Program-made: the position numbers and the translations under genes
Source of the DNA: Oceanospirillum maris DSM 6286
Lineage (GTDB): Bacteria > Pseudomonadota > Gammaproteobacteria > Pseudomonadales > Halomonadaceae
Direction of reading: 5' to 3'
Length of the DNA: 64,000 bases
NCBI RefSeq assembly: GCF_000422865.1
Contig: NZ_AUGW01000012.1
Span: 1 to 64,000 of the forward strand
The notes under the pieces: generated by a model
The model's database searches: none
Seen by the model: the letters and a program-made list of their open reading frames with translations, nothing else
Told to the model about the DNA's origin: nothing
Shown: piece after piece, positions 26,122-40,293 of the stretch
How positions within the stretch are numbered: position 1 is the first letter of the stretch
Layout: each line of letters begins with the position of its first letter

Positions 26122-26207
26122 TCTGAAACCCTTGATGCTTTTGCCAGCAAATTGCCTGCTTGAATCTTTTAAATCTCTTACAACTGAATTTTGGTTGCTG
26201 GATTTAT

Positions 26208-26226
26208 GCAACTATTATATAGTTGC
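26208..26226. promoter_or_regulatory. Operator-like inverted repeat upstream of hicB
   Basis: GCAACTAT-TAT-ATAGTTGC, a perfect inverted repeat with 8-bp arms. A TTATAT -10-like hexamer lies within it, and TTGGTT at 18-bp spacing could be the -35. This suits autoregulation by the ribbon-helix-helix domain of the downstream protein. Confidence 0.55.
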
Positions 26227-26268
26227 AATTGGTTTGATGATTACATGAATGAGCAATGGAGAAATTTC

Positions 26269-26838
26269 GTGGCAGGAATGATGAAGCATAAAGGGTATTT
26301 GGGGTCCGTAGAGTTTGATCTCAACCAACAACTTCTACATGGCAAGATTGAGGCAGTGAACGACCTGGTCACTTATGAGGCCAAAGATATTGCGGGATTG
26401 AAAGCTGCATTCGAAGAAGCCGTAGATGATTATCTTGCAACCTGTGAAGAACAGGGCAAAGCCCCAGATAAGTCAATGAATGGCAGCTTTAATATCCGTA
26501 TAGGTGAAGAGTTGCACAAGAAGGCGTGTCTGAGGTCTTTAGAAAAGGGTTGCTCGATCAATGATGTGATTAAACAGTCGGTAGCTTATTACTTGGGAGA
26601 TAACGTCAAGTCAGAGCAGCTGAAGATTAGTGACGATTATTTGCTAAATATGGCCACTATCAACACGGTTGAGACTGGCTCAGATGCCATGCGGATCAGT
26701 ATGACTGGTGGATACGAGTTTATTTGGGTCTACATTGGTACAGGGGTTTCTGACGGTCAGCATATTTATGTTGAAGTTAATGAGTTTCATCGAATTAAGC
26801 GTCAGATTGGTGAATACCTAGATCGGAAAGGACGTTAG
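26269..26838 (+). CDS. HicB-like protein with C-terminal extension, no HicA partner
   Basis: A 189-aa protein. Residues ~4-65 are a HicB domain (KHKGYLGSVEFDLNQQLLHG, LVTYEAKDIAGLKAAFEEAV, DDYLATCEEQGKAPDK), followed by a ribbon-helix-helix part (GSFNIRIGEELHKKACLRSL) to about residue 105. Another ~85 residues of unrecognised sequence follow (MATINTVETGSDAMRISMTG). GTG at 26269 is chosen because GGAG lies 7 nt upstream. HicB normally neutralises HicA, an mRNA-cleaving toxin encoded just upstream, but there is no HicA here. It could be cargo of the prophage or a leftover of a larger module. Confidence 0.75.
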   Translation: MAGMMKHKGYLGSVEFDLNQQLLHGKIEAVNDLVTYEAKDIAGLKAAFEEAVDDYLATCEEQGKAPDKSMNGSFNIRIGEELHKKACLRSLEKGCSINDVIKQSVAYYLGDNVKSEQLKISDDYLLNMATINTVETGSDAMRISMTGGYEFIWVYIGTGVSDGQHIYVEVNEFHRIKRQIGEYLDRKGR

Positions 26839-27588: not shown

Positions 27589-28049
27589 TGACGTTGCCAA
27601 AGCAAGACCACAGGTTCGAGATTAAGGATTGCCAGCCTGTGAGCTATTCTTTTCGGTCGCTGTAAGAGGCTTTCGGTAAGGCGTGTAAGGATCACTCAGG
27701 GCCTGTTCAAAACCTGCTTGAAGAGCTAACAGCAGATGGTTTCACAGCTCAACTTGAGAGTGATTTTGGTCTTGGCTGGGGTAACCGTTTTGAAAAACAG
27801 GCGTTACGTTTTATCTCGGTGATGTTGGCTATAGGGGCCTCTAAAGGCGAAGCGCTGGACCATCTGCTTATGAGCAGGGTAATGCGCCAGGGAAAGGTAA
27901 CTGGACGTTTTGATGTCAGCGCAGATGCTATCCGTAACTTGATGGGCGCACTTGAGACATTCTGGGACAAGTCGAGCCTTGAAGGCTTGCCCGAGAAGTC
28001 GCTGGAGCTGATGGAGAAAGACATCAAGCGCAAAGAGGTTGGCTTTTGA
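27525..28049 (+). pseudogene. McrB-like AAA+ restriction subunit, C-terminal remnant
   Basis: The frame reads [20 protein letters not shown], the AAA+ sensor-1 and arginine-finger region typical of McrB-type NTPases. An in-frame TAA at 27663 interrupts it. It then continues EELTADGFTAQLESDFGLGW, KQALRFISVMLAIGASKGEA and a helical C-terminus to the TGA at 28047-28049. Walker A and B motifs are gone, replaced by IS5 sequence. The stop overlaps the next start by one base, the usual coupling of McrB- and McrC-type genes. Non-functional. Confidence 0.75.
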
Positions 28050-29846
28050 TGTGGATAGATCGACTGACCGGTGAGCAGATAAATCGATTACCAGACGTTA
28101 TTGAGCCTGGGCGATATCTGGACACAGAGCCTTCCTCCGGCCGACAAATCCTGGACTCAGGGGACAGTGGCCTTTTGGTTAGCGATGGCACGGAGTCCGT
28201 TGTCATTCGCGGTCAACGCCATATATTCGCTTCTGCCCCAAAGTCTCTGGATCAAAAGGTGGATTTGTTTGAGCGAATACTTGAGACAATTGATTCCGTC
28301 CCCGAGGACGATGGTGATTTGGTTTCACCACTTATGCCTGAGGGGGTGGTTAATGATAACAGTCATTTAAACGCTTTCGAGCTTAAATTGCTGGAGGCTC
28401 TGGATGCTGGACACCTCCATCAAATATCCGTGAGGCCAAGGCTTGATCTGCACTATGAAGACGAAGTGACTGATGTTGCTAGGGCTAAAAAGTTGGCGAA
28501 AGGTGCCTTGGTTCATCTCGCCTCACACTCTGAATGCTGGCAGCGTCAGACCTTGTCAGGAGTGATTCCCAAGCGAGTCAAAGCGCGCTTCAGTGAAGAT
28601 GACTTCAACATTTATGAAAACCGAGTTTACGCCCGGTTACTGGATAAGATTGAGCTGTATTTGATTTGGCGAGTCGGTACGCTTCTACAGCTGCAGTCGG
28701 CAGTTACTGAGGCTTTGGAGTTTTACGGTGCTAAGGACTTGCATCATCGCCTCACGGAGGAAATCTGCAAGCTCTGGGGGAAAGCGTTTACACAGGACTC
28801 CACCAGCAAAGCTTCTGAGCAGCTGGCGGCAACACTCGAGCATCTTGAAAAAGCACTGGGAACAATTCGGGGGCTAAAGCAAAGCGGGCTTTATCTTTTA
28901 GTAAGCCGCTCTGCACAGATAGGTAATGGCCTCCATCTCACAAATATTCTTAGTCACGATCAGCACTACCGTCACTTGGCGGTTCTATGGAATGAATTGA
29001 AGAGCATCGTGGGAGGCAAGCAAGCAACACCTGAGGAACGGAAGGAGAAAAATGTGATACTAAACCATGCTTATTCACGATATGCAGGTTTAGTTCTTCG
29101 TCATGCGCTGCTTCCTTACCTTGGAAACAAACTGTCTTCCAAGTGGGCTCGATTGGCAGTTAGTTTTATCAGCATCCGATGCAGGTAGCGTTGAACGAGT
29201 TCTACTTGAGGTGATTCCATGGATGTGCATGGGCAACCGATTGCATGATTTATCTTGTGCGCTGCAGGAGAAGGAGCGGCCAGTAAGGATGATTGCATGG
29301 CCGAATCTTGATGATAAATCGTTGTGCTCAGATGTCGCAGCGACCGAGGGCGTTTGGATAAAGCTTTCACCATTCGACCTGTACTGTGTGGAGAGATTTG
29401 GACTGTTGGTCGACCAACTTTTGCAAAGCGAGCTGGTTGTCGGATACGGCACTTTAATCACTAAAGTTCCGACCAAAACGCTCAAGGCGATGCCTTTCGA
29501 TGAAGGGATTGAGGTGAATGAACAGAAGCATCAGATCAGGATTCTCAAAGCTCTGTCTAGTGAGCATCTTTCCAAATTAGAAAGCTCTTTGGTGCATGAA
29601 AATGCTTTAGAGCAAGCCAAAGACCTGAAGAGAAGGCATGAAGAGATAGTCGAACTGCAGAAATGTCCGGTTTGTTCCGGTCCAGTTGAAGTTGTTCATC
29701 AGGCTCCGAACGGGTTTATTGCCACTTGTTCGTCTTGTAAGACAAATCGATATCTTAGAGGAAAGGAATATGAGCAGCGTCTTGATAGTGAAGTGAATTT
29801 TTTAACTATTGGTAGACGCAGGTTTAAGGTTTTGCTTCGTAATTAA
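28049..29846 (+). pseudogene. DUF2357/McrC-type partner gene, frameshifted
   Basis: Two overlapping frames make one gene. 28049-29188 encodes about 380 residues (N-terminal IDRLTGEQINRLPDVIEPGR; a helical centre with FNIYENRVYARLLDKIELYL, the signature-like block of DUF2357 proteins). From about 29130 the sense continues one frame over as GLDWQLVLSASDAGSVERVL and WIKLSPFDLYCVERFGLLVD, ending with a CPVCSG..CSSC zinc ribbon. One extra base near 29140 would explain this. DUF2357 proteins accompany McrB-like AAA+ subunits in type IV-like restriction systems. With its AAA+ partner destroyed, the system is dead here. Two separate proteins with an 86-bp overlap is the less likely alternative. Confidence 0.68.
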
Positions 29847-30076: not shown

Positions 30077-33000
30077 ATGGAACCTGATTCGCAAGAAATT
30101 ACGGATAAATTTAGCTATAAGCCAAAAAAAATCACTCCTGCACTTAAACAAGAGATCGATCAGGCCCGAGCTGAGGCTGGTCTTTTCTACCGCTTTGATG
30201 AAAGTGAGGTGCCATTACTGATTCAGTCTCAGGACGGTACCGCTAGTGGAAAGACCTACAGCGTTTTCAAACAGTATCTTGATGCAGTAAATCCTGCAGT
30301 ACATGCAGGCGAGGGACACCGTAATCTGGTTTTTATTACCCCTCTGAAATCTCAAATTGATCTGCCAGCAGAGTTACTGGCGCTGGCAGCAGAGAAGCAG
30401 GTAAGGGTACTGCCTTTTCTCTCTATTGCAGATCTTGAATTTATTCCCTGGGGGCAGGAACCTCAGGGTGAAAAGAGCAACAATACAAACCGTTATCGTC
30501 GCTGGATAACACAGGGAAAACGGTTGTTTGGCGCAACAAGCTCTGTATATATCGCATTTTCCCGCCTTGATGCTCTGCTCACCGGACAGTTGGGCATTGA
30601 GCAACAGATAAAAGCTGAGTATGCAGCGGGAGCACTCGACTCTCAGGATCAGCTGAAGGATAAGCTGCGCGACAGCAGGCTGAGTTTAGTCAATCAGTTA
30701 CGTAATACCTGCCTTGAACTTCTAGATGCCCAGGGAGAAGAGGTCGATCAATTGGTAGACCTGGTGGAGAAGGGTAAAAGCCAAAAGGGGCAACTGGCTT
30801 TGGAGATGCTGGAGCATCTGTTCCCGTTCCAGATAGCCCTTTACCGCCGCTGTATATTGCTGGCCACCACAAAAAAATTTGATGGCAATGTGACTTTGCT
30901 GAGGTGTAATCAGGAAGGGCACTTCACCCGATCTGAACGACCGCTGGATCATCTGATTGGCCAGAAAAAAACACTTAAAGAGAATCCTTTAGGAGAGATT
31001 GCTCAGCTGCCTCATACTGAACGTCTTAAGGCTTTGAAAGAAGAGTACTTCCCATCAGATGTGAGCTCACCATTTTTACAGCGGGATATCCGTTTCACTC
31101 TGGTTTTGGATGAAGAGCATGACGCTTATCAGATTTTCCAGGAGAGTGTGACCAAGGTTCTATTATCGGAAAATGTACAATTGCCATCCCTGTTTGCCGC
31201 GTTGCACCGGGTATTGGAGTTTGTTGATGGATGCGCAGAAGACGCCCGTGCCCTTAGCTATACACCGCTGAAAGAGTACGTAGATGCAATCCATGCGGCG
31301 CTTAAAAAATGTGACCTGAGAACAGACTTTGAACTGAAAAAATTGACTCGGCTGTTTCAGAACTCACTGGCAGATATTGTGGTAGACGGACGTAACAGCG
31401 AACAGGTGATCGCTTTGATCGGTCATGTGTTCAGTTATCAGATACAGCGTTTTTATCGGGAAGCAGACCTGAAACGTATTCGTCTTCGCAGCCATGGGCG
31501 AAGTTCTTACACTGAAATTTATGTCGCTGATGAAGATTCTGAAGCTTATCAGGACGATAACTTCAGCCTGTATGAAGTGTACCAGACGACAACAGCTGTC
31601 CTTGCCGCATCAGCGCAGCTCACCAAGCCTGGCCCTATACAAAATATGCTCTCTCAGCAGGAGCATTCCAATCATAACAACCCGCTATCCGTTTTTATTG
31701 GCACGGCGCAGGCGATAAAAGGTGAGGCCCGTTATCTGTTAGCCGGTAAAGGGGATCACGACCAGCTGATTGATGATTTTTTCACCTACTTCCAGCCCAA
31801 AACTCTGTTTGCACTATCCCCGCGGGATAGAGTCAAAATTCAGGCCAAGGAGTTGAAAGGATGGATTTTGCTGAAATTCCGCATGGAGCTGATTAAGGAG
31901 TTGCCGGAAATTGCACTGTTGCGAATGCTTTATCAAACAAAGAACACTGTGATGCTTTTATCCGCCACATCGGGCTTTCCGGGAACCTATAACGGTCAGT
32001 ACAGTCGGCCGTTTCTGCAAGCCTATAGCCATGATCTGGGGGTCGCAGTTCGACGTCGCGATACAGAGTCTGCAAGCCAACTGGCCCATATCCGAAAACT
32101 TCGGACAAGCTTCCGCCCGGTTGATATCAGTATTTTTAATGACGAGCAGTTACAGCTCAGCCCCCAGATATCAGAACCGGACTTTAAGTCGGTCTATGAG
32201 TACTGGCTACGGCTTTTAAGCCCCTACCTGACGGATATTCGTCGTAATCGTTATCACAACCGAGAGTTTATCCGGCACCTGCAGGCAATTTTGCTGGCCG
32301 CATATAACCAGCAACATACCCTAAGCATCGGTCTTAGCAGTCGTGTTTTTAGTGTGCTGGGCCGTTTTGTAAGAGACCAACTGAACAGTGCCACACCTTT
32401 GAAAAATATCCGGCAACTGGATCATCGTCAGCAGGATGAACCGCCACGGGTCTTTGAGATAAAACCATTTAAAGGTAAAAACCACATACGGGTCGTGCTG
32501 TTTGATTCCATGCTGAACCGAGAAGATGATGTACGCGAATATCTCAAGGTGGATGATACTGACGTGACACTTTGCATGGTGTCTCATTTTAAAGGAGCCG
32601 GAACGGGGCTGAACTATTATGTGACCTATCCGGATCCCCTTCAGCCTTTCCAGGTGGACTTCCAGAATATGTCCATGGTTTGCGGCAGCTATTGGAGCCA
32701 GGTTAATCAACAGACCAATCATGGTTGCAGCCGGAATACACTGGCCAATTATATCACCCTGCTTAAACATTATGCCCATAGCGGTATTATCCGCAGCATT
32801 GATGATTTTGATACCGATCTGCTGGATTCTGATTCTGCTCAGCTATTGGAACGTGAGCACTGCGTAGAAGTATTTAAAACTGCGATGCAAACTATTGGCC
32901 GTACAGAACGCCGTGACGCCATAATGCAGAGCCAGATCCGATTGCCCTATGATGTCCATCTGAATGCGATGCGTGTATTTCGTGATCTTGAACAATATCC

Positions 33001-34117
33001 GGATGCCGAGACGCTTCGGGTCTCTTTAAGCCTGCATAACGATAATTGGCGGTGCCGTGCGCTCTCAGATCTGGAAAAAGCCAGCTTTATGACTGATGAT
33101 AAGCGTAAAGCATTTGAACAGCAGGTACAGGAAGCCTGCGAGCTTTACGATGAATTTGATCAGACCTTTCAACAGCATATTTTACAAGCGGCCCGCCAAG
33201 GTAACCCCGATGCATTGGCCTTCAATGAGGCTTTCAGACACCCGGACTCCTTTACCAACCCGAGTTCTTATATCAAACGTTTACTTAAAAACGCCATCGT
33301 TAAAAACGATGTTTTACTCCAAGCTTGCATTAAGAACTTTTATCTTCAGCGGGATGACAGCTGGAAAAATGTAATTCTTGCTCAAGAACCCCATGAGCCT
33401 TTTGGGTTGACCGATTTGGCCAATGGAACAAGACCTTATTTACCGGAGCTGATACTCCCGCAGCATCATCAGGATATGACTGAAGTGCTGCCAGATCTGG
33501 AGCAGAAGCTATTTAAACAGATACTCAATACAAAACCTGATGTTTTACAGAAGTGGATTCCTATTCCCAAGCTTAGGCCTATGTTAATCGGGAATATTGG
33601 TGAGTGGCAGTTCAGCCTGCTTTTGCAAAGGCTTGGTATTAGCCCTTTAAGTCCTGATGAGGTATGTGAGCATCTTGGTGCAGCGTGCTATGAGAAGTTT
33701 GACTTTTACTTCCTTCGGGACGGACATCTATTGGCTGTTGATGTGAAAAACTGGCAGATGACGGGCAACAACCGAGAGCAAGGTCGGAATCTGTTCAGCT
33801 CAGCACATCAGAAACTATGCCAGGTTACTCAGGCTGTAGCTAAAAACCCGGCTATTTCAGATGTAAAAGCCGTCTATCTGAATACGCGATACAGTCGTAA
33901 CGCCCAAAATGATCGGTCAGAGCAGTGTGCTGACCAAGCGCTCTATTTTATGAACCTTTTTAAATCAGTGCCTTATTATCAGGATGCAGAGAAAAAACAT
34001 AAGACAAGGAATTACATCGCAGCGATCCATTATCAGTTGCGGGTGAATCCAGGGTTATTGGCCTTGTTGCCCAGGTTGGCTGATGACACAGAAACAGCAG
34101 TTCCACTTACCCATTAA
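30077..34117 (+). CDS. SF2 helicase with C-terminal PD-(D/E)XK nuclease, probable defence effector
   Basis: A 1346-aa protein. Walker A is DGTASGKT (53-60). Walker B is LVLDEEHDAY (around 345), a DExH-type box. Motif III is LLSATSGFPG (~627). Motif V-like FKGAGTGLN lies near 842 and motif VI-like IGRTERRD near 940. This order and spacing fit an SF2 helicase with a large insertion between motifs I and II. Near the C-terminus GEWQFSLLLQ (~1177), EKFDFYFL (~1210) and LLAVDVKNW (~1218-1226) supply the E, D and D-x-K of a PD-(D/E)XK nuclease. GAGGT lies 6 nt upstream of the ATG. It opens a two-gene operon, 27 bp from the next gene, inside an island of broken restriction genes and IS ends. I infer anti-phage or anti-plasmid function. 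It resembles no named defence helicase that I can place. Confidence 0.8.
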   Translation: MEPDSQEITDKFSYKPKKITPALKQEIDQARAEAGLFYRFDESEVPLLIQSQDGTASGKTYSVFKQYLDAVNPAVHAGEGHRNLVFITPLKSQIDLPAELLALAAEKQVRVLPFLSIADLEFIPWGQEPQGEKSNNTNRYRRWITQGKRLFGATSSVYIAFSRLDALLTGQLGIEQQIKAEYAAGALDSQDQLKDKLRDSRLSLVNQLRNTCLELLDAQGEEVDQLVDLVEKGKSQKGQLALEMLEHLFPFQIALYRRCILLATTKKFDGNVTLLRCNQEGHFTRSERPLDHLIGQKKTLKENPLGEIAQLPHTERLKALKEEYFPSDVSSPFLQRDIRFTLVLDEEHDAYQIFQESVTKVLLSENVQLPSLFAALHRVLEFVDGCAEDARALSYTPLKEYVDAIHAALKKCDLRTDFELKKLTRLFQNSLADIVVDGRNSEQVIALIGHVFSYQIQRFYREADLKRIRLRSHGRSSYTEIYVADEDSEAYQDDNFSLYEVYQTTTAVLAASAQLTKPGPIQNMLSQQEHSNHNNPLSVFIGTAQAIKGEARYLLAGKGDHDQLIDDFFTYFQPKTLFALSPRDRVKIQAKELKGWILLKFRMELIKELPEIALLRMLYQTKNTVMLLSATSGFPGTYNGQYSRPFLQAYSHDLGVAVRRRDTESASQLAHIRKLRTSFRPVDISIFNDEQLQLSPQISEPDFKSVYEYWLRLLSPYLTDIRRNRYHNREFIRHLQAILLAAYNQQHTLSIGLSSRVFSVLGRFVRDQLNSATPLKNIRQLDHRQQDEPPRVFEIKPFKGKNHIRVVLFDSMLNREDDVREYLKVDDTDVTLCMVSHFKGAGTGLNYYVTYPDPLQPFQVDFQNMSMVCGSYWSQVNQQTNHGCSRNTLANYITLLKHYAHSGIIRSIDDFDTDLLDSDSAQLLEREHCVEVFKTAMQTIGRTERRDAIMQSQIRLPYDVHLNAMRVFRDLEQYPDAETLRVSLSLHNDNWRCRALSDLEKASFMTDDKRKAFEQQVQEACELYDEFDQTFQQHILQAARQGNPDALAFNEAFRHPDSFTNPSSYIKRLLKNAIVKNDVLLQACIKNFYLQRDDSWKNVILAQEPHEPFGLTDLANGTRPYLPELILPQHHQDMTEVLPDLEQKLFKQILNTKPDVLQKWIPIPKLRPMLIGNIGEWQFSLLLQRLGISPLSPDEVCEHLGAACYEKFDFYFLRDGHLLAVDVKNWQMTGNNREQGRNLFSSAHQKLCQVTQAVAKNPAISDVKAVYLNTRYSRNAQNDRSEQCADQALYFMNLFKSVPYYQDAEKKHKTRNYIAAIHYQLRVNPGLLALLPRLADDTETAVPLTH

Positions 34118-34144
34118 ATTGTCAGTAACAGAGGATGTAACACT

Positions 34145-36259
34145 ATGACAGATTCAACTTTTGTACATCAGATTAGGATGGATGAAATGCAGTCATTTCT
34201 TCCCCTGGCAGAGGCCCCAAAAGCCCGGACTCAGCTGTTTGATCTGTCTGAACCGGTTGAATGTATGCTGGAAAAATTGCTGCAGCCAAAAGAGAGCAGC
34301 GAGTTGAGTATCGATATCTTGTTGCTCCCTTTTGCCAGAAAAGGCAGAGACTGGCCTGAATATATGAAACAGGCACATCAAACGATCCGAAAAGCAATAG
34401 GGTCTGCACTTGATACAAAGGTAAAGCCCAATTTTCAGTATCACACCCTGAGAATAAAAGAGTATTTTCTGGTGGTATATCTCTCACCCAAGCCTGATGT
34501 CACTCCGTCAAAGCTGCAGGAGTTTAAAGCCAAGGGCTTTGATCTTTACCGATTGGTTCAGGCCGTACTTGAGTTGCATCTGAAGCGCCGTCTGATTAAA
34601 GAAGCTGCAGATAATTTCGAGCTGGGTATTGTGGATTACAACAGCGAACTCTTTTTCGCAGCGGAAGTGCAGTCAGATAAAGCCAACAAAAGGGGGCATT
34701 TCTATGTAGATGCCCTTAGTTTTGAACTCTATTTTTCACCGGATTTTAAAGACCTGACCTTTGCGCTGCATGGTAAGTGTTTTCAGTCACAAACTCCGGG
34801 AGTGGGGCTGGTTTCCGGAGAGGATCGACTGCTGTTGACGAACAAAGAGACTCAGCAGATCTTAGAAATGGTCAGCACCACTCGCTTTGGGAAAAAACCT
34901 TATATGCGTTTTGCAACGCAAAGCTATTGGGGCTGCCGTAACCATGCTGAAAATCAGATTCAGCGCTATCTTTGCGATATTTTTGAAGAATATGAGATTG
35001 CCTTCTCACCCCGAATTTTTCAAGCAACACATCACTACAACCACTTTATTCAGAAGGCTAATACCCATTTAAAACGACCTCTGGTGCTGATTGATAACCT
35101 GGGGCATTACCCTTACGTCAATAGAGATGATGTTCTTGAAGAGCTTAAAAACAGTTTAGGTGCGACCGAAATTATCCAACCATTACCTATTGAGCAGCTG
35201 AACCCTAGCAGCAATTATCTGGTGCTCAACCACGAGATAAAATCTAACGGTTCTAGTGTAGTTATTACTGAAGCCTCAAAAAATAAAGGTGGAGCAGAGA
35301 GTAACAGTAAGAGCAAAATGGTTAATAGCTTTTGGCAAGCCTGGGAACATGTGGCAGGAAAAGGGAACGTGCATGACCTGGACTACTACAGCCAGCTGAA
35401 AGTACAGCGACTAAAAAAACCTAATTCGCATCTGCCATTGGTCCTTCAGGGTTGTAATCTTGGTTCTGATAAAAAGACAAACGCACTCAAGTCTCCAAAT
35501 ACTCACAAAACAGAAACTCTGGCAAACCAGTTATGGCTTAAAGAAGCAGTATTTTCCCATGGAAAAATTCACGGCTTTAAAGTTCCTGACAGTACCTACA
35601 TTTTGGTTTCTGTTCGCAAAACCAAACGTCAACGCGGTGGCCGTGAAAAAGTGCTTATCGCAGCCACCCGGGTTGAGTTTGCAGAGGGTATCCTGCATAT
35701 CGGTAGGCCCGATTATTTCGATTCTGAAGCAAAAGCAAGGGTTCACCTTAAGGCTTTTAAAGACAGTGTGGGAAAACTCTACAACGATAATTTCTACCTG
35801 ATTGATGAACAGCGTGAAGTTGTGATCTGCCGATATAACACCAATCGTGTGCCTGCGGTGATTGGCTCAGTAGATCGTTGTTCTATGGAAACAGCCAGGG
35901 GGGCCGACGGGCAGATCAGTAAGTCCATCAAACCGGATAAAAGCGTACTGCCATACTACTTAGCCCGCAAACCCAAAGAAAATAACCTTAACCAGTATCA
36001 ACAGCTTTTCATTCAGAAAAATGGCAATGAGGCTCTGGTGTTCTGTACACCAAAAAATCAGATCAAGCAGATGCCTGGCAAAAGAATTCTGACATATAAC
36101 TTTATTGGGCGTCGTTTTGATGGTCAGGAGGTTGACGTACTTCAGGAGCCGGCCGCGCAGCTGTTACTTTGTACCTATACTATGGATTTATTGAAACAGA
36201 AAGAGATCACGCAAAGCTCTCTGTTAGAAAAAATCTCGAAAATGATGCTGGAAAACTAA
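34145..36259 (+). CDS. 704-aa partner of the helicase-nuclease, family unknown
   Basis: A large soluble protein without P-loop, zinc motif or membrane segment. The N-terminal ~200 residues are mixed alpha/beta (IDILLLPFARKGRDWPEYMK, HTLRIKEYFLVVYLSPKPD). A central part has strand-like runs (PLVLIDNLGHYPYV, SSNYLVLNHEIKSNGSSVVI). The C-terminal third is beta-rich with a basic patch (TKRQRGGREKVLIAATRVEF) and ends with helices. AGAGGA lies 9 nt upstream of the ATG. It is co-transcribed with the helicase-nuclease. Helicase, REase and a ~700-1000-aa protein together recall the pPIWI-RE islands, so a divergent PIWI/RNase H fold is possible, but I see no motif that proves it. Function unassigned. 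Confidence 0.6.
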   Translation: MTDSTFVHQIRMDEMQSFLPLAEAPKARTQLFDLSEPVECMLEKLLQPKESSELSIDILLLPFARKGRDWPEYMKQAHQTIRKAIGSALDTKVKPNFQYHTLRIKEYFLVVYLSPKPDVTPSKLQEFKAKGFDLYRLVQAVLELHLKRRLIKEAADNFELGIVDYNSELFFAAEVQSDKANKRGHFYVDALSFELYFSPDFKDLTFALHGKCFQSQTPGVGLVSGEDRLLLTNKETQQILEMVSTTRFGKKPYMRFATQSYWGCRNHAENQIQRYLCDIFEEYEIAFSPRIFQATHHYNHFIQKANTHLKRPLVLIDNLGHYPYVNRDDVLEELKNSLGATEIIQPLPIEQLNPSSNYLVLNHEIKSNGSSVVITEASKNKGGAESNSKSKMVNSFWQAWEHVAGKGNVHDLDYYSQLKVQRLKKPNSHLPLVLQGCNLGSDKKTNALKSPNTHKTETLANQLWLKEAVFSHGKIHGFKVPDSTYILVSVRKTKRQRGGREKVLIAATRVEFAEGILHIGRPDYFDSEAKARVHLKAFKDSVGKLYNDNFYLIDEQREVVICRYNTNRVPAVIGSVDRCSMETARGADGQISKSIKPDKSVLPYYLARKPKENNLNQYQQLFIQKNGNEALVFCTPKNQIKQMPGKRILTYNFIGRRFDGQEVDVLQEPAAQLLLCTYTMDLLKQKEITQSSLLEKISKMMLEN

Positions 36260-36598: not shown

Positions 36599-37288
36599 TT
36601 AATCTTTCGGTTGAGCAAGTCGCCATTTTTTCCCAGTTTTACTTACCCGAATTAGAGTGCCGTTTTTTATTAATGGGTTGGTGACTTCTTGAATCTCACG
36701 GAAGGTGATTTCGAGCAAACGGGCTAGCTCTTTTATCGTAATTGGCTGTTTTTTCAGTACTTTTTTGACTTCCTCTTGCCATTCATTTATCTGCTCAGCG
36801 CTAACTTTTGTAGATTGTTTTATCGCAGGTAAGGGGGTATTTTTTAGCGTTGTCGTCTGCTGATCTTGCTGAGAATAATCTGACAAATTCAAGGCTTTAA
36901 CCCCTGCCTCGATGGCAATTTTCGGGTCTGGCAGCTGAGGTAGTTCTAGGCAAACTAAAAGTGTTAACACGACTTGATGTCGATTACAGAGGCTTTTAAA
37001 CGCTTGAATGAGCTCTTGATCCTTGGTCAACAGAATAATGCGTTTGGTTGGGCCAAGTTCGGTCATCAATACCTGTGTCAGTACTGAGATCATATAAAAA
37101 TCGGCCTGATTTTTACCCACATCATAATCATCAAACAGCTGGGCATGTAACGGATAGCGGGAACACCATTTTCGAGCATTACTGCTGCGAGAGAAGACCA
37201 TAAAACAATTGCGCTGACCGCAACCCATCGGAAGTTGATTCAGTAGAAAACAGCCCACATTCTCTACATCAATAAACCAAATATCCAT
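36599..37288 (-). CDS. NYN/PIN-like domain protein with C-terminal winged helix
   Basis: A 229-aa protein. MDIWFIDVENVG gives the first acidic cluster of a PIN/NYN nuclease fold. QADFYMISVLTQVL and IILLTKDQELIQAFKSLC are at the places of the later acidic residues. A linker rich in Gln/Thr (~140-165) leads to a winged-helix-like C-terminus (VLKKQPITIKELARLLEITF, then NGTLIRVSKTGKKWRL). PIN/NYN domains cut RNA. The gene is convergent with the helicase operon; whether it works with it is unknown. No neighbour shares its strand closely, so it is probably monocistronic. Confidence 0.65.
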   Translation of the reverse strand: MDIWFIDVENVGCFLLNQLPMGCGQRNCFMVFSRSSNARKWCSRYPLHAQLFDDYDVGKNQADFYMISVLTQVLMTELGPTKRIILLTKDQELIQAFKSLCNRHQVVLTLLVCLELPQLPDPKIAIEAGVKALNLSDYSQQDQQTTTLKNTPLPAIKQSTKVSAEQINEWQEEVKKVLKKQPITIKELARLLEITFREIQEVTNPLIKNGTLIRVSKTGKKWRLAQPKD

Positions 37289-38394: not shown

Positions 38395-40293
38395 ATGACC
38401 TATCAGGCGCAATACGAAAAGTCTATCCAGCAACCCGAACAATTTTGGGCTGAAAAAGCTGCAGATATACCTTGGTACAAAAAACCGACTCAGATTCTTG
38501 GTAAGGATGATTTTGGCACCGACCGCTGGTTTATTGATGGCGAAATGAATACTTGCTATGCCGCTGTTGATTACCATGTTGAAAACGGTCGCGGTGAGCA
38601 GATTGCTCTGTATTACGATTCACCAGTTACCGATATTAAGCGTTCGATTACCTATAAAGAACTTCAGACAGAAGTATCTACCTTTGCCGGTGCATTAGCT
38701 GCGAAAGGGGTTGGCAAAGGTGATCGGGTTATTGTTTATATGCCAATGGTGGCAGAAGCTGTTGTTGCGATGTTGGCCTGCGCCCGTCTTGGTGCGGTGC
38801 ACTCCGTTGTCTTTGGCGGCTTTGCTCCCCATGAACTGGCTGTTCGGATTGATGATGCGAAACCTAAGGCAATAATTTCAGCGTCCTGTGGTATCGAAAT
38901 CCAGAAAGTTATTCCTTATAAGGAAATGGTCGATAAGGCGATCGGGCTTGCTGAACATAAACCCGATTTTTGTGTGCTTCTTCAGCGCCCGCAGGCAATT
39001 GCAGAGCTAATTGAAGGTCGTGATTTTGATTGGCAGGCATTAATGAATGATGCCGATCCCGTGCCTTGTGTCTCGGTTAAAGCAACCGATCCGCTTTATA
39101 TTCTTTATACCTCCGGTACGACAGGCAAGCCAAAGGGTGTCGTGCGTGATAATGGCGGTCATGCTGTCGCGCTTAAATACAGCATGAAAGCTATTTACGA
39201 TATGAACCCCGGTGAAGTCTTTATGGCGGCATCTGATGTGGGTTGGGTTGTTGGTCATTCTTATATTGTGTATGCGCCGTTGTTAGCGGGCTGTACCAGT
39301 GTTGTTTACGAAGGAAAGCCTGTTAGAACGCCCGATTGTGGTGCTTTTTGGCGCTTGATTGAAGAATATCAGATCAAAGGCTTTTTCACTGCACCGACCG
39401 CTTTCCGTGCGATGAAAAAAGAAGATCCAAACGGCGAAGAACTGAAAAAGTATGATATCTCTTGCTTGAAAAACCTGTTCTTGGCGGGTGAGCGTTTAGA
39501 TCCACCAACCTTCTTCTGGCTTCAAGAGCTTGTTGGTGTACCGGTTGTTGACCACTGGTGGCAAACCGAAACAGGTTGGGCTATCGCCGCGAACCAAATG
39601 GGCATTGAACCCCGTACACCAAAAGCTGGCTCGGCTACGGTTCCAACCCCAGGTTTTAATGTTCAGATTCTGGACAATAAAGGCGGCCAAATGCCAAAAG
39701 GCGAGCAGGGTAGTGTTTGTATTCAGCTGCCGATGCCTCCGGGTTGTTTGACAACGGTTTACGGTGATCCTGAGCGCTTTAAAAGCTCTTATCTTAATAC
39801 CTTTGATGGCTATTATTTAACGGGTGATGGAGGCTACATTGACGAAGACGGTTATGTTTTCATCATGGGTCGTACCGATGATGTCATTAATGTCGCAGGC
39901 CACCGTCTTTCCACTGGCGAAATGGAAGAGATTATTGCTTCCCATGAAGGTGTCGCTGAATGTACCGTTATTGGTATTAATGACGAGCTAAAAGGTCAGC
40001 TACCGGTTGGGTTGGTTATCACTAAAGATGGCTATAACATTGATGAGGCTACCCTGGAAGCAGAATTAGCTGCGTTGGTTCGTAAAGAGATTGGTGCCAT
40101 CGCTTGTTATAAGCAAACGATGGTGGTTGATCGATTGCCTAAAACCCGTTCAGGTAAAATTCTGCGGGGGATTTTACGCTCAATTGCTGATGGTAAATCT
40201 TACCAAGTACCTTCAACCATTGATGATCCTGCAAGCTTACCTGAGATTGAATCCATTATGGCTGACCATAAAATTGGTGTGGCAGGTCAATAA
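38395..40293 (+). CDS. prpE: Propionyl-CoA synthetase (PrpE-type acyl-CoA ligase)
   Basis: A 632-aa AMP-forming acyl-CoA synthetase. ATP-binding loop YTSGTTGKPKGVVRDNGGH (~236-254), VGHSYIVYAPLLAG (~285), the adenylate site DHWWQTETGWAI (~388) and YYLTGDGGYIDEDGY (~475). The C-terminal PKTRSGKILRG carries the Lys that is acetylated in the Acs/PrpE family. The RDNGG and GHSYIVY signatures favour propionate (PrpE/ACSS3) over acetate, but acetate use is possible. It converts the acid, ATP and CoA to acyl-CoA and AMP. No other prp genes are adjacent. The TTGTCGACAA-type boxes upstream suggest GntR-family control. The gene for the acetyltransferase that could silence it lies 11 kb downstream. Confidence 0.92.
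   Translation: MTYQAQYEKSIQQPEQFWAEKAADIPWYKKPTQILGKDDFGTDRWFIDGEMNTCYAAVDYHVENGRGEQIALYYDSPVTDIKRSITYKELQTEVSTFAGALAAKGVGKGDRVIVYMPMVAEAVVAMLACARLGAVHSVVFGGFAPHELAVRIDDAKPKAIISASCGIEIQKVIPYKEMVDKAIGLAEHKPDFCVLLQRPQAIAELIEGRDFDWQALMNDADPVPCVSVKATDPLYILYTSGTTGKPKGVVRDNGGHAVALKYSMKAIYDMNPGEVFMAASDVGWVVGHSYIVYAPLLAGCTSVVYEGKPVRTPDCGAFWRLIEEYQIKGFFTAPTAFRAMKKEDPNGEELKKYDISCLKNLFLAGERLDPPTFFWLQELVGVPVVDHWWQTETGWAIAANQMGIEPRTPKAGSATVPTPGFNVQILDNKGGQMPKGEQGSVCIQLPMPPGCLTTVYGDPERFKSSYLNTFDGYYLTGDGGYIDEDGYVFIMGRTDDVINVAGHRLSTGEMEEIIASHEGVAECTVIGINDELKGQLPVGLVITKDGYNIDEATLEAELAALVRKEIGAIACYKQTMVVDRLPKTRSGKILRGILRSIADGKSYQVPSTIDDPASLPEIESIMADHKIGVAGQ

What the first reader, a model, noticed from the sequence alone, without database searches (positions are those of the whole stretch)
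30077..36259. Intact two-gene operon: helicase-nuclease plus an unrecognised 704-aa protein, candidate new defence system
The first gene joins an SF2 helicase (GTASGKT, DEEH, SAT, GRTER) to a C-terminal PD-(D/E)XK nuclease (GEWQF..KFDFY..VDVKNW). The second, 27 bp on, is a large soluble protein with no motif that I can name. They are the only undamaged genes among broken restriction genes and IS ends, between a prophage and core DNA. I cannot match the pair to DISARM, Zorya, Hachiman, Mokosh, BREX or McrBC from the sequence. The nearest parallel is the pPIWI-RE island (PIWI-like protein, helicase, REase), here with helicase and REase fused.
Basis: partly seen in the sequence, partly recalled or inferred. 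Interest (0 to 1): 0.82.

Follow-up and report, generated by a model that had tools for sequence, protein, structure and literature searches.

The report
ApsAB-like antiplasmid operon
These two genes are a member of a bacterial defence system already described in E. [quoted passage not shown] they are not a new kind of system.

Summary
Two intact genes 27 bp apart encode a 1346-aa SF2 helicase with a C-terminal PD-(D/E)XK nuclease and a 704-aa partner, beside a broken AAA-ATPase/DUF2357 module and a transposase remnant. "New system" does not hold. The pair is homologous over its whole length to E. coli ApsAB, a published antiplasmid system (Zongo et al. 2024, PMC11096173). An E. coli homologue (L005) carries the ApsA and ApsB residues named in that paper's section 11 at the paper's numbers. 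All 18 positions checked are kept in the window, including the four whose mutation reduced or abolished activity. The closest relative found is a second E. coli type (ATCC 8739; 54% and 43% identical), about as far from ApsAB as the distant variant that the authors cloned and found active. The 704-aa protein has the Argonaute MID motif Y-x3-K..QG..K and the invariant C-terminal Asn; it matches no pPIWI-RE, pAgo or DdmE profile significantly. Most likely mechanism: the ApsB-like protein holds a guide, finds plasmid DNA and brings in the ApsA-like helicase-nuclease. This is inferred from ApsAB mutants and from DdmDE; no guide has been shown, and no fold could be predicted here. New member of a known kind.

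The parts
30077..34117 (+). apsA-like gene, 1346 aa: SF2 helicase with C-terminal PD-(D/E)XK nuclease
   Evidence: ORF; 32.9% identity over 1294 aa to E. coli ApsA (L005) and 54.3% over 1296 aa to the ATCC 8739 homologue
30236..30256 (+). Walker A GTASGKT, aa 54-60; K59 = ApsA K221
31109..31120 (+). motif II DEEH, aa 345-348; E346 = ApsA E533
31961..31969 (+). motif III SAT, aa 629-631
32888..32911 (+). motif VI QTIGRTER, aa 938-945
33599..33748 (+). nuclease core: GE aa 1175-1176, D1209 (= D1420), D1222-V-K1224 (= D1433, K1435)
34145..36259 (+). apsB-like gene, 704 aa, Argonaute-like partner
   Evidence: ORF; 27.7% over 653 aa to E. coli ApsB (L005), 43.4% over 664 aa to the ATCC 8739 homologue
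35387..35401 (+). MID-like motif Y415-x3-K419 (= ApsB Y409, K413)
   Evidence: invariant in 11 of 11 aligned ApsB-like rows
35447..35452 (+). MID-like motif Q435-G436 (= ApsB Q431, G432)
   Evidence: 11 of 11 rows
35540..35542 (+). MID-like motif K466 (= ApsB K489)
   Evidence: 11 of 11 rows
36254..36256 (+). C-terminal N704 (= ApsB N743)
   Evidence: 11 of 11 rows

Best explanation
The pair is an ApsAB-like antiplasmid system. The ApsB-like 704-aa protein is an Argonaute-like sensor that holds the 5' end of a guide nucleic acid in a MID-type pocket (Y415, K419, Q435, K466, C-terminal carboxylate) and recognises complementary plasmid DNA. It recruits the ApsA-like protein, which uses ATP to load onto and translocate along the DNA, and whose PD-(D/E)XK domain cuts it, so that the plasmid is lost. 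Shown here: gene integrity, homology of both proteins to ApsAB, and conservation of every residue reported as mutated in ApsAB. Shown by others for ApsAB: plasmid elimination and the need for ATPase residues and the MID lysine. Inferred: a guide exists in this protein, ApsB recruits ApsA as DdmE recruits DdmD, and this copy is active.
For: Whole-length homology of both genes in the same order to the E. coli pair. L005 carries GFGKS 218, DELH 532, SAT 823, QAVGRVER 1140, D1420, DVK 1433-1435 in the first protein and Y409, K413, Q431, K489, N743 in the second, as numbered for ApsA and ApsB. In the window, K221, E533, K1435 (ApsA) and K413 (ApsB) correspond to K59, E346, K1224 and K419. The window groups with the ATCC 8739 type with support 100/100 in both the ApsA and the ApsB tree. 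That type is 29.4%/28.3% identical to L005 (local alignments), close to the 28%/25% variant that the authors cloned and found active. In 11 of 11 loci with a full-length open apsA-like ORF the apsB-like ORF follows directly, 8 bp of overlap to 31 bp apart. Defence setting in relatives: the pair lies directly downstream of the Shango genes SngABC in L007 and L023; the paper reports Shango in some of the same kind of E. coli islands. MID quartet among 40 invariant ApsB columns: 3 of 200000 and 14 of 200000 shuffles.
Against: No experiment on this copy. No significant profile match of the ApsB-like family to pAgos or pPIWI-RE, to any PDB chain (only two chance-level Rab5a rows), or to Pfam and PADLOC. 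The fold was not predicted. The shuffles used a motif known from Argonautes, but I set the spacing limits after seeing the residues, and the pPIWI-RE alignment does not show the pattern. No sigma-70 promoter-like site was found upstream. The published nuclease mutant K1435A had only a partial effect, so the nuclease step is the weakest link. The two loci brought in by apsB hits alone (L003, L004) show no apsA gene beside their apsB pieces.
Confidence: 0.85

Rival explanations
1. It is a DdmDE system: DNA-guided inactive pAgo (DdmE) plus DdmD helicase-nuclease.
For: Same two-protein logic and domain order. The ApsA profile hits the nuclease domain of a DdmD homologue (L021) at E 1.5e-6, and L021 matches solved DdmD (E 1.4e-83) and DdmE (E 2.4e-21). 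Zongo et al. join ApsA and DdmD in one wide family.
Against: The ApsB-like profile finds no DdmE chain at E up to 10, and the A4 profile finds no DdmD chain. The window P2 carries the MID quartet that the paper says DdmE lacks. In pairwise comparison the window ApsA aligns to L021 over only 121 aa, against 1294 aa to ApsA.
Confidence: 0.05
2. A pPIWI-RE restriction island with helicase and REase fused.
For: Helicase, nuclease and PIWI-like protein together. The best, non-significant, hhalign stretch lies at a comparable place near the C-terminus.
Against: E 0.21; no pPIWI-RE Pfam hit in 8 members. Real triads fetched here have a separate ~345-aa REase gene first and pPIWI-RE last. The significant homology is to ApsAB.
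Confidence: 0.03
3. An antiphage system in this host rather than an antiplasmid one.
For: It lies beside a prophage and a broken AAA + DUF2357 module. Two relatives sit directly behind Shango genes.
Against: ApsAB showed no activity against the E. coli phages tested, but did destabilise plasmids; so did a distant variant.
Confidence: 0.1
4. A decayed, inactive copy left in a graveyard of mobile elements.
For: Its upstream neighbours are broken. It lacks the N-terminal ~160 residues of E. coli ApsA.
Against: Both frames are open. All 18 catalytic or motif positions checked are kept. The ATCC 8739 and Acidovorax homologues lack the same N-terminal part (53 and 40 residues before the Walker A lysine, 58 in the window), and no significant remnant of it is found in the window (best E 0.56).
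Confidence: 0.07

Closest known systems
E. coli ATCC 8739-type ApsAB-like pair (L048; WP_001190348.1, WP_000133029.1; annotated hypothetical)
   Same: 54.3% and 43.4% identical; the same short N-terminus of ApsA; the same gene order; joined with the window in both trees
   Different: Genes overlap by 8 bp (27-bp gap in the window); it lies between a sugar-phosphate gene cluster and an rhs gene
ApsAB of E. coli ST38 (Zongo et al. 2024)
   Same: Helicase-nuclease plus Argonaute-like protein; 18 of 18 positions checked conserved
   Different: About 33% and 28% identical (L005 as stand-in); the window ApsA lacks about 160 N-terminal residues
DdmDE (Vibrio cholerae; structures 9bf1, 8u3k and others)
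   Same: Two-gene helicase-nuclease and pAgo-type sensor; antiplasmid (review passages)
   Different: Sequence link only through the nuclease of L021; DdmE not detected
pPIWI-RE triad (Burroughs et al. 2013, PMC3702460, abstract and passages)
   Same: PIWI-like protein with helicase and REase
   Different: Three genes, DinG helicase with a cysteine-rich region, conserved R and E in the PIWI module; no significant profile match
Long-B pAgo with associated nuclease (RsAgo-like, L026)
   Same: MID Y-x3-K..Q..K and a uniform C-terminus (FL/FM in 11 of 11 pAgos, EN in 9 of 9 ApsB-like)
   Different: No significant profile match

Membership tests
ApsAB | Two adjacent genes, helicase-nuclease then Argonaute-like protein | tested here: met
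ApsAB | Whole-length homology of both proteins to ApsA and ApsB | tested here: met
   32.9% over 1294 aa and 27.7% over 653 aa; tblastn 97% coverage each, E 2e-128 for ApsA and 2e-41 for ApsB
ApsAB | ApsA helicase and nuclease residues (K221, DELH, SAT, QAVGRVER, D1420, D1433, K1435) | tested here: met
   K59, DEEH, SAT, QTIGRTER, D1209, D1222, K1224; 12 of 12 positions checked identical, other motif letters vary
ApsAB | ApsB motif Y[X]3K[X]nQG[X]nK and C-terminal N | tested here: met
   Y415, K419, Q435-G436, K466, N704
ApsAB | N-terminal extension of E. coli ST38-type ApsA | tested here: not met
   58 residues before the Walker A Lys against 220; also short in L048 and L017, so I do not count it as defining for the wider family
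ApsAB | Eliminates plasmids | not testable with these tools
   needs an experiment
DdmDE | DdmE-type partner | tested here: not met
   No PDB DdmE hit with the ApsB-like profile at E up to 10, whereas L021's partner hits it at 2.4e-21
DdmDE | DdmD-type helicase-nuclease | tested here: inconclusive
   Only a nuclease-domain link to L021, E 1.5e-6; no PDB DdmD hit with A4
pPIWI-RE | pPIWI-RE RNase H domain (PF13032) | tested here: not met
   0 of 8 members hit; hhalign E 0.21
pPIWI-RE | Three-gene order REase, DinG helicase, pPIWI-RE | tested here: not met
   Two genes, nuclease fused to the helicase; real triads
Prokaryotic Argonaute (long-B) | Significant match to a Piwi/pAgo profile | tested here: not met
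Prokaryotic Argonaute (long-B) | MID quartet Y-K-Q-K | tested here: met
Prokaryotic Argonaute (long-B) | MID and PIWI fold | not tested
Prokaryotic Argonaute (long-B) | Bound guide nucleic acid | not testable with these tools
   needs purification and sequencing

The most novel reading that the evidence does not exclude
The window belongs to a compact second clade of ApsAB (window, E. coli ATCC 8739 type) in which ApsA lacks the N-terminal extension. In the family as a whole ApsB would be a true but catalytically dead MID-PIWI Argonaute: an invariant Arg (R491) may stand where the first catalytic Asp of the RNase H fold would be, and the invariant C-terminal carboxylate sits in the guide pocket. 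ApsAB and DdmDE would then be two branches of one guide-directed plasmid-elimination superfamily, which also share a divergent WYL-domain regulator in some loci (L019, L020 and the DdmDE locus L021).
Probability: 0.3. Interest if true: 0.45.

Novelty: new member of a known kind. Interest (0 to 1): 0.25.

Why it matters
The clade with the window gives a compact natural variant that could show which parts of ApsA are needed and what guide ApsB carries, a question the authors of ApsAB left open (discussion passage). It is not a new system.

Tried and rejected
Family libraries: Pfam, PADLOC and NCBIfam give nothing for either protein at E up to 1; Pfam (only a Tna_leader match in 2 of 8) and PADLOC (none) give nothing useful for 8 ApsB-like members at E up to 10. 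PADLOC-DB is of 2023 and the ApsAB paper of 2024, so its silence meant little.

Collections: peptide-pattern scans of genome contigs and viral contigs found no relative; tblastn of phages with ApsA gave none (ApsB was not run there). Rarity: own genome only among 97 and among 369 of the class (ApsB profile). With the ApsA profile, 5 of 398 of the phylum matched, own genome and one DdmDE included, 4 of 148 around G776 (three of them already) and 3 of 246 of the family of G733 (one already). PF13032 gave 0 of 97, 0 of 249, 2 of 25 and 4 of 99; PF02171 gave 3 of 249.

Argonaute idea by profile: not significant. P2 v. pPIWI-RE E 0.21, v. pAgo 0.45, P1 v. DinG helicase 0.011; the known relatives pPIWI-RE v. 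pAgo reach only 0.0015 with these shallow alignments. In hmmsearch the best PIWI protein ranks eighth, behind seven of 138 unrelated decoys. My reading of R491 and D554 as RNase H positions is by eye, from recalled Argonaute motifs. Zongo et al. say that the PIWI RNase H fold is not conserved in ApsB, which speaks against it.

Rows dropped: A5 leaves out L021 (DdmDE, aligned badly in A3), the near-duplicates L006 and L007, and the partial L003 and L004. L004 was left out of the invariance count and put back. L024's partial ApsA is absent from A4 and from the ApsA tree; L006 and L022 were in no tree. In one search, L017 shows K at E533 and E at D532; the alignment there may be wrong. The trees carry warnings: very long branch of L017, long-branch joins possible for L020; the join of window and L048 rests also on 54%/43% identity.

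Not counted as full pairs: L002 (apsA in three ORFs), L049 (apsA in two ORFs), L024 (apsA cut by the contig end).

Considered: that the pair is an accessory of Shango. Rejected because in L005, L006, L019, L020, L048 and the window the gene directly upstream is something else.

Recalled, from no call: the hAGO2 MID residue numbers, the general Argonaute and XPD motif layout, McrBC as the likeness of AAA + DUF2357, and the acetyl-CoA synthetase reading at 38395.


Full report
What is there. Two open genes on the + strand, 30077-34117 (1346 aa) and 34145-36259 (704 aa), are separated by 27 bp. The first protein has SF2 helicase motifs and a C-terminal PD-(D/E)XK site. About 285 residues separate DEEH (345) from SAT (629); from recalled motif layouts this is unlike a plain DEAD-box enzyme. 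Neither protein matches a Pfam, PADLOC or NCBIfam model at E up to 1. The second gene has a single match in its own genome (the first was not searched there alone, but the ApsA profile also gave one place).

Setting. To the left lies a lambda-type prophage with head protease, tape measure, tail fibre, terminase-like and portal genes, then a transposase ORF with a truncated DDE domain match. Next come a 127-aa fragment (27666-28049) and a DUF2357 gene split between two frames (28031-29188, 29103-29846). On a Rhodoferax antarcticus plasmid the DUF2357 protein is one 608-aa ORF overlapping an upstream 788-aa AAA ATPase by 4 bp. The window fragment is 47% identical to the last 124 residues of that ATPase (E 9e-33), and the two DUF2357 pieces match residues 4-374 (41%, E 5e-82) and 397-572 (24%, E 2e-12) of the one homologue. 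So the neighbour is a broken AAA + DUF2357 module. The N-terminal part of E. coli ApsA has left no significant trace in the window (best E 0.56).

Relatives. tblastn of plasmid records found the same two genes in order in an E. coli record, at 30% and 24% identity with 97% coverage each. By DNA similarity that E. coli pair is in 147 of 5426 complete E. coli genomes, with 142 covering at least 80% of the query, all 152 places on chromosomes. Examples lie near tRNA-Phe (L005, L007) and near fim (L006). Partial second genes are in Comamonas (L004) and Oceanisphaera (L003). A second E. coli type appears when the window DNA itself is searched: 42 of 5426 genomes have a match at about 65% identity, none covering 80% of the query. 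Its ATCC 8739 copy (L048) is 54.3% and 43.4% identical to the window pair. In 11 of 11 loci with a full-length open apsA-like ORF the apsB-like ORF follows directly; most of these loci were found through apsA, so they say how often apsB accompanies apsA, not the reverse.

Identification. A paper found by searching for Shango, defence island, Escherichia coli and Argonaute describes ApsAB, an antiplasmid system of E. coli ST38 (Zongo et al. 2024, PMC11096173). I saw the abstract and passages, and section 11 in full. L005 has GFGKS at 218, DELH at 532, SAT at 823, QAVGRVER at 1140, D1420 and DVK at 1433-1435 in a 1569-aa protein, and Y409, K413, Q431, K489 and a final N743 in the second protein, each at the number printed for ApsA and ApsB. 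In the window 18 of 18 positions checked are identical; the mutated residues K221, E533, K1435 and K413 correspond to K59, E346, K1224 and K419. The ApsB motif and the C-terminal Asn are invariant in 11 of 11 aligned proteins. In both the ApsA and the ApsB tree the window joins L048 with support 100/100. L048 is 29.4%/28.3% identical to L005 by local alignment. The paper reports that a distant E. coli variant, 28%/25% identical, also destabilised a ColE1 plasmid. That this variant is the L048 type is likely but not proven; ATCC 8739 is not named in the main text. No paper of the library holds the five E. coli accession numbers that I searched; the ApsAB paper uses its own gene names.

I reached the MID reading on my own before finding the paper (note). 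The 40 invariant columns of eight ApsB-like proteins contain Y-x3-K, Q and K in the Argonaute order. Shuffles reproduce this in 3 of 200000 (positions and letters) or 14 of 200000 (letters only), with limits set after seeing the residues. The pAgo alignment shows the same pattern; the pPIWI-RE, DinG-helicase, REase and ApsA alignments do not. Profile comparisons do not reach significance for pAgo or pPIWI-RE. The paper's AlphaFold model shows only loose similarity to pAgos and no conserved PIWI RNase H fold.

How it most likely works. Shown by the authors for ApsAB: plasmid elimination within hours of induction; loss of activity in K221A, E533A and ApsB K413A; a partial effect of K1435A; no activity against the E. 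coli phages tested (passages). For DdmDE, a review (PMC12409362, passages) states that DdmE uses DNA guides to find plasmid DNA and recruits the autoinhibited DdmD dimer, which then translocates on the non-target strand and cuts. The ApsA profile touches a DdmD homologue in the nuclease domain (L021, E 1.5e-6; identity of L021). By analogy, the ApsB-like protein is the guide-bearing sensor and the ApsA-like protein the motor and nuclease. The guide, the recruitment step and the activity of this copy are inferred.

What differs. The window ApsA has 58 residues before the Walker A lysine, as in L048 (53) and L017 (40), against 213-232 in the six others aligned. Two ApsAB-like loci (L019, L020) and the DdmDE locus L021 have a divergent WYL-domain gene upstream; the review names a WYL-domain gene, VC1772, as a possible regulator of ddmDE. 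By annotation or ORF reading I saw no WYL gene directly upstream in the window, L005, L006, L007, L017, L018, L023 or L048; L022 and L024 end too soon to tell. In L007 and L023 the pair follows Shango SngABC directly; the paper reports Shango in some of the E. coli islands.

Verdict. Observation confirmed. The claim of a new system is refuted by homology to ApsAB. New member of a known kind; modest interest.

Noticed in passing
window 27666-29846: Broken AAA ATPase + DUF2357 module: C-terminal fragment of the ATPase (47% to a Rhodoferax homologue) and a DUF2357 gene split between two frames; the intact homologue (L050) is one 608-aa ORF.
   Followed up: yes
window 36599-37288 (-): Convergent 229-aa ORF with a weak PIN7-like N-terminus (E 0.023) and weak HTH-type matches at its C-terminus; weak match to PADLOC PsyrA (E 0.0016).
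   Followed up: no
L019 12825-13775, L020 13088-13960, L021 4073-4939: Divergent WYL-domain genes beside two ApsAB-like loci and one DdmDE locus.
   Followed up: partly
   Followed up: partly
L017 3745-5409 and 5643-7334: Two ~560-aa proteins, each with a weak Glyoxalase_8 stretch, directly upstream of a diverged ApsAB-like pair on an Acidovorax plasmid; the second overlaps the pair's first gene by 4 bp, so it may be a third component.
   Followed up: no
L004 9572-10816: Comamonas plasmid with only the C-terminal part of an ApsB-like protein beside IS91-type sequence: a likely decayed copy on a plasmid.
   Followed up: no
window 1646-26838: Lambda-type prophage structural genes with a HicB-like gene at 26191-26838.
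   Followed up: no
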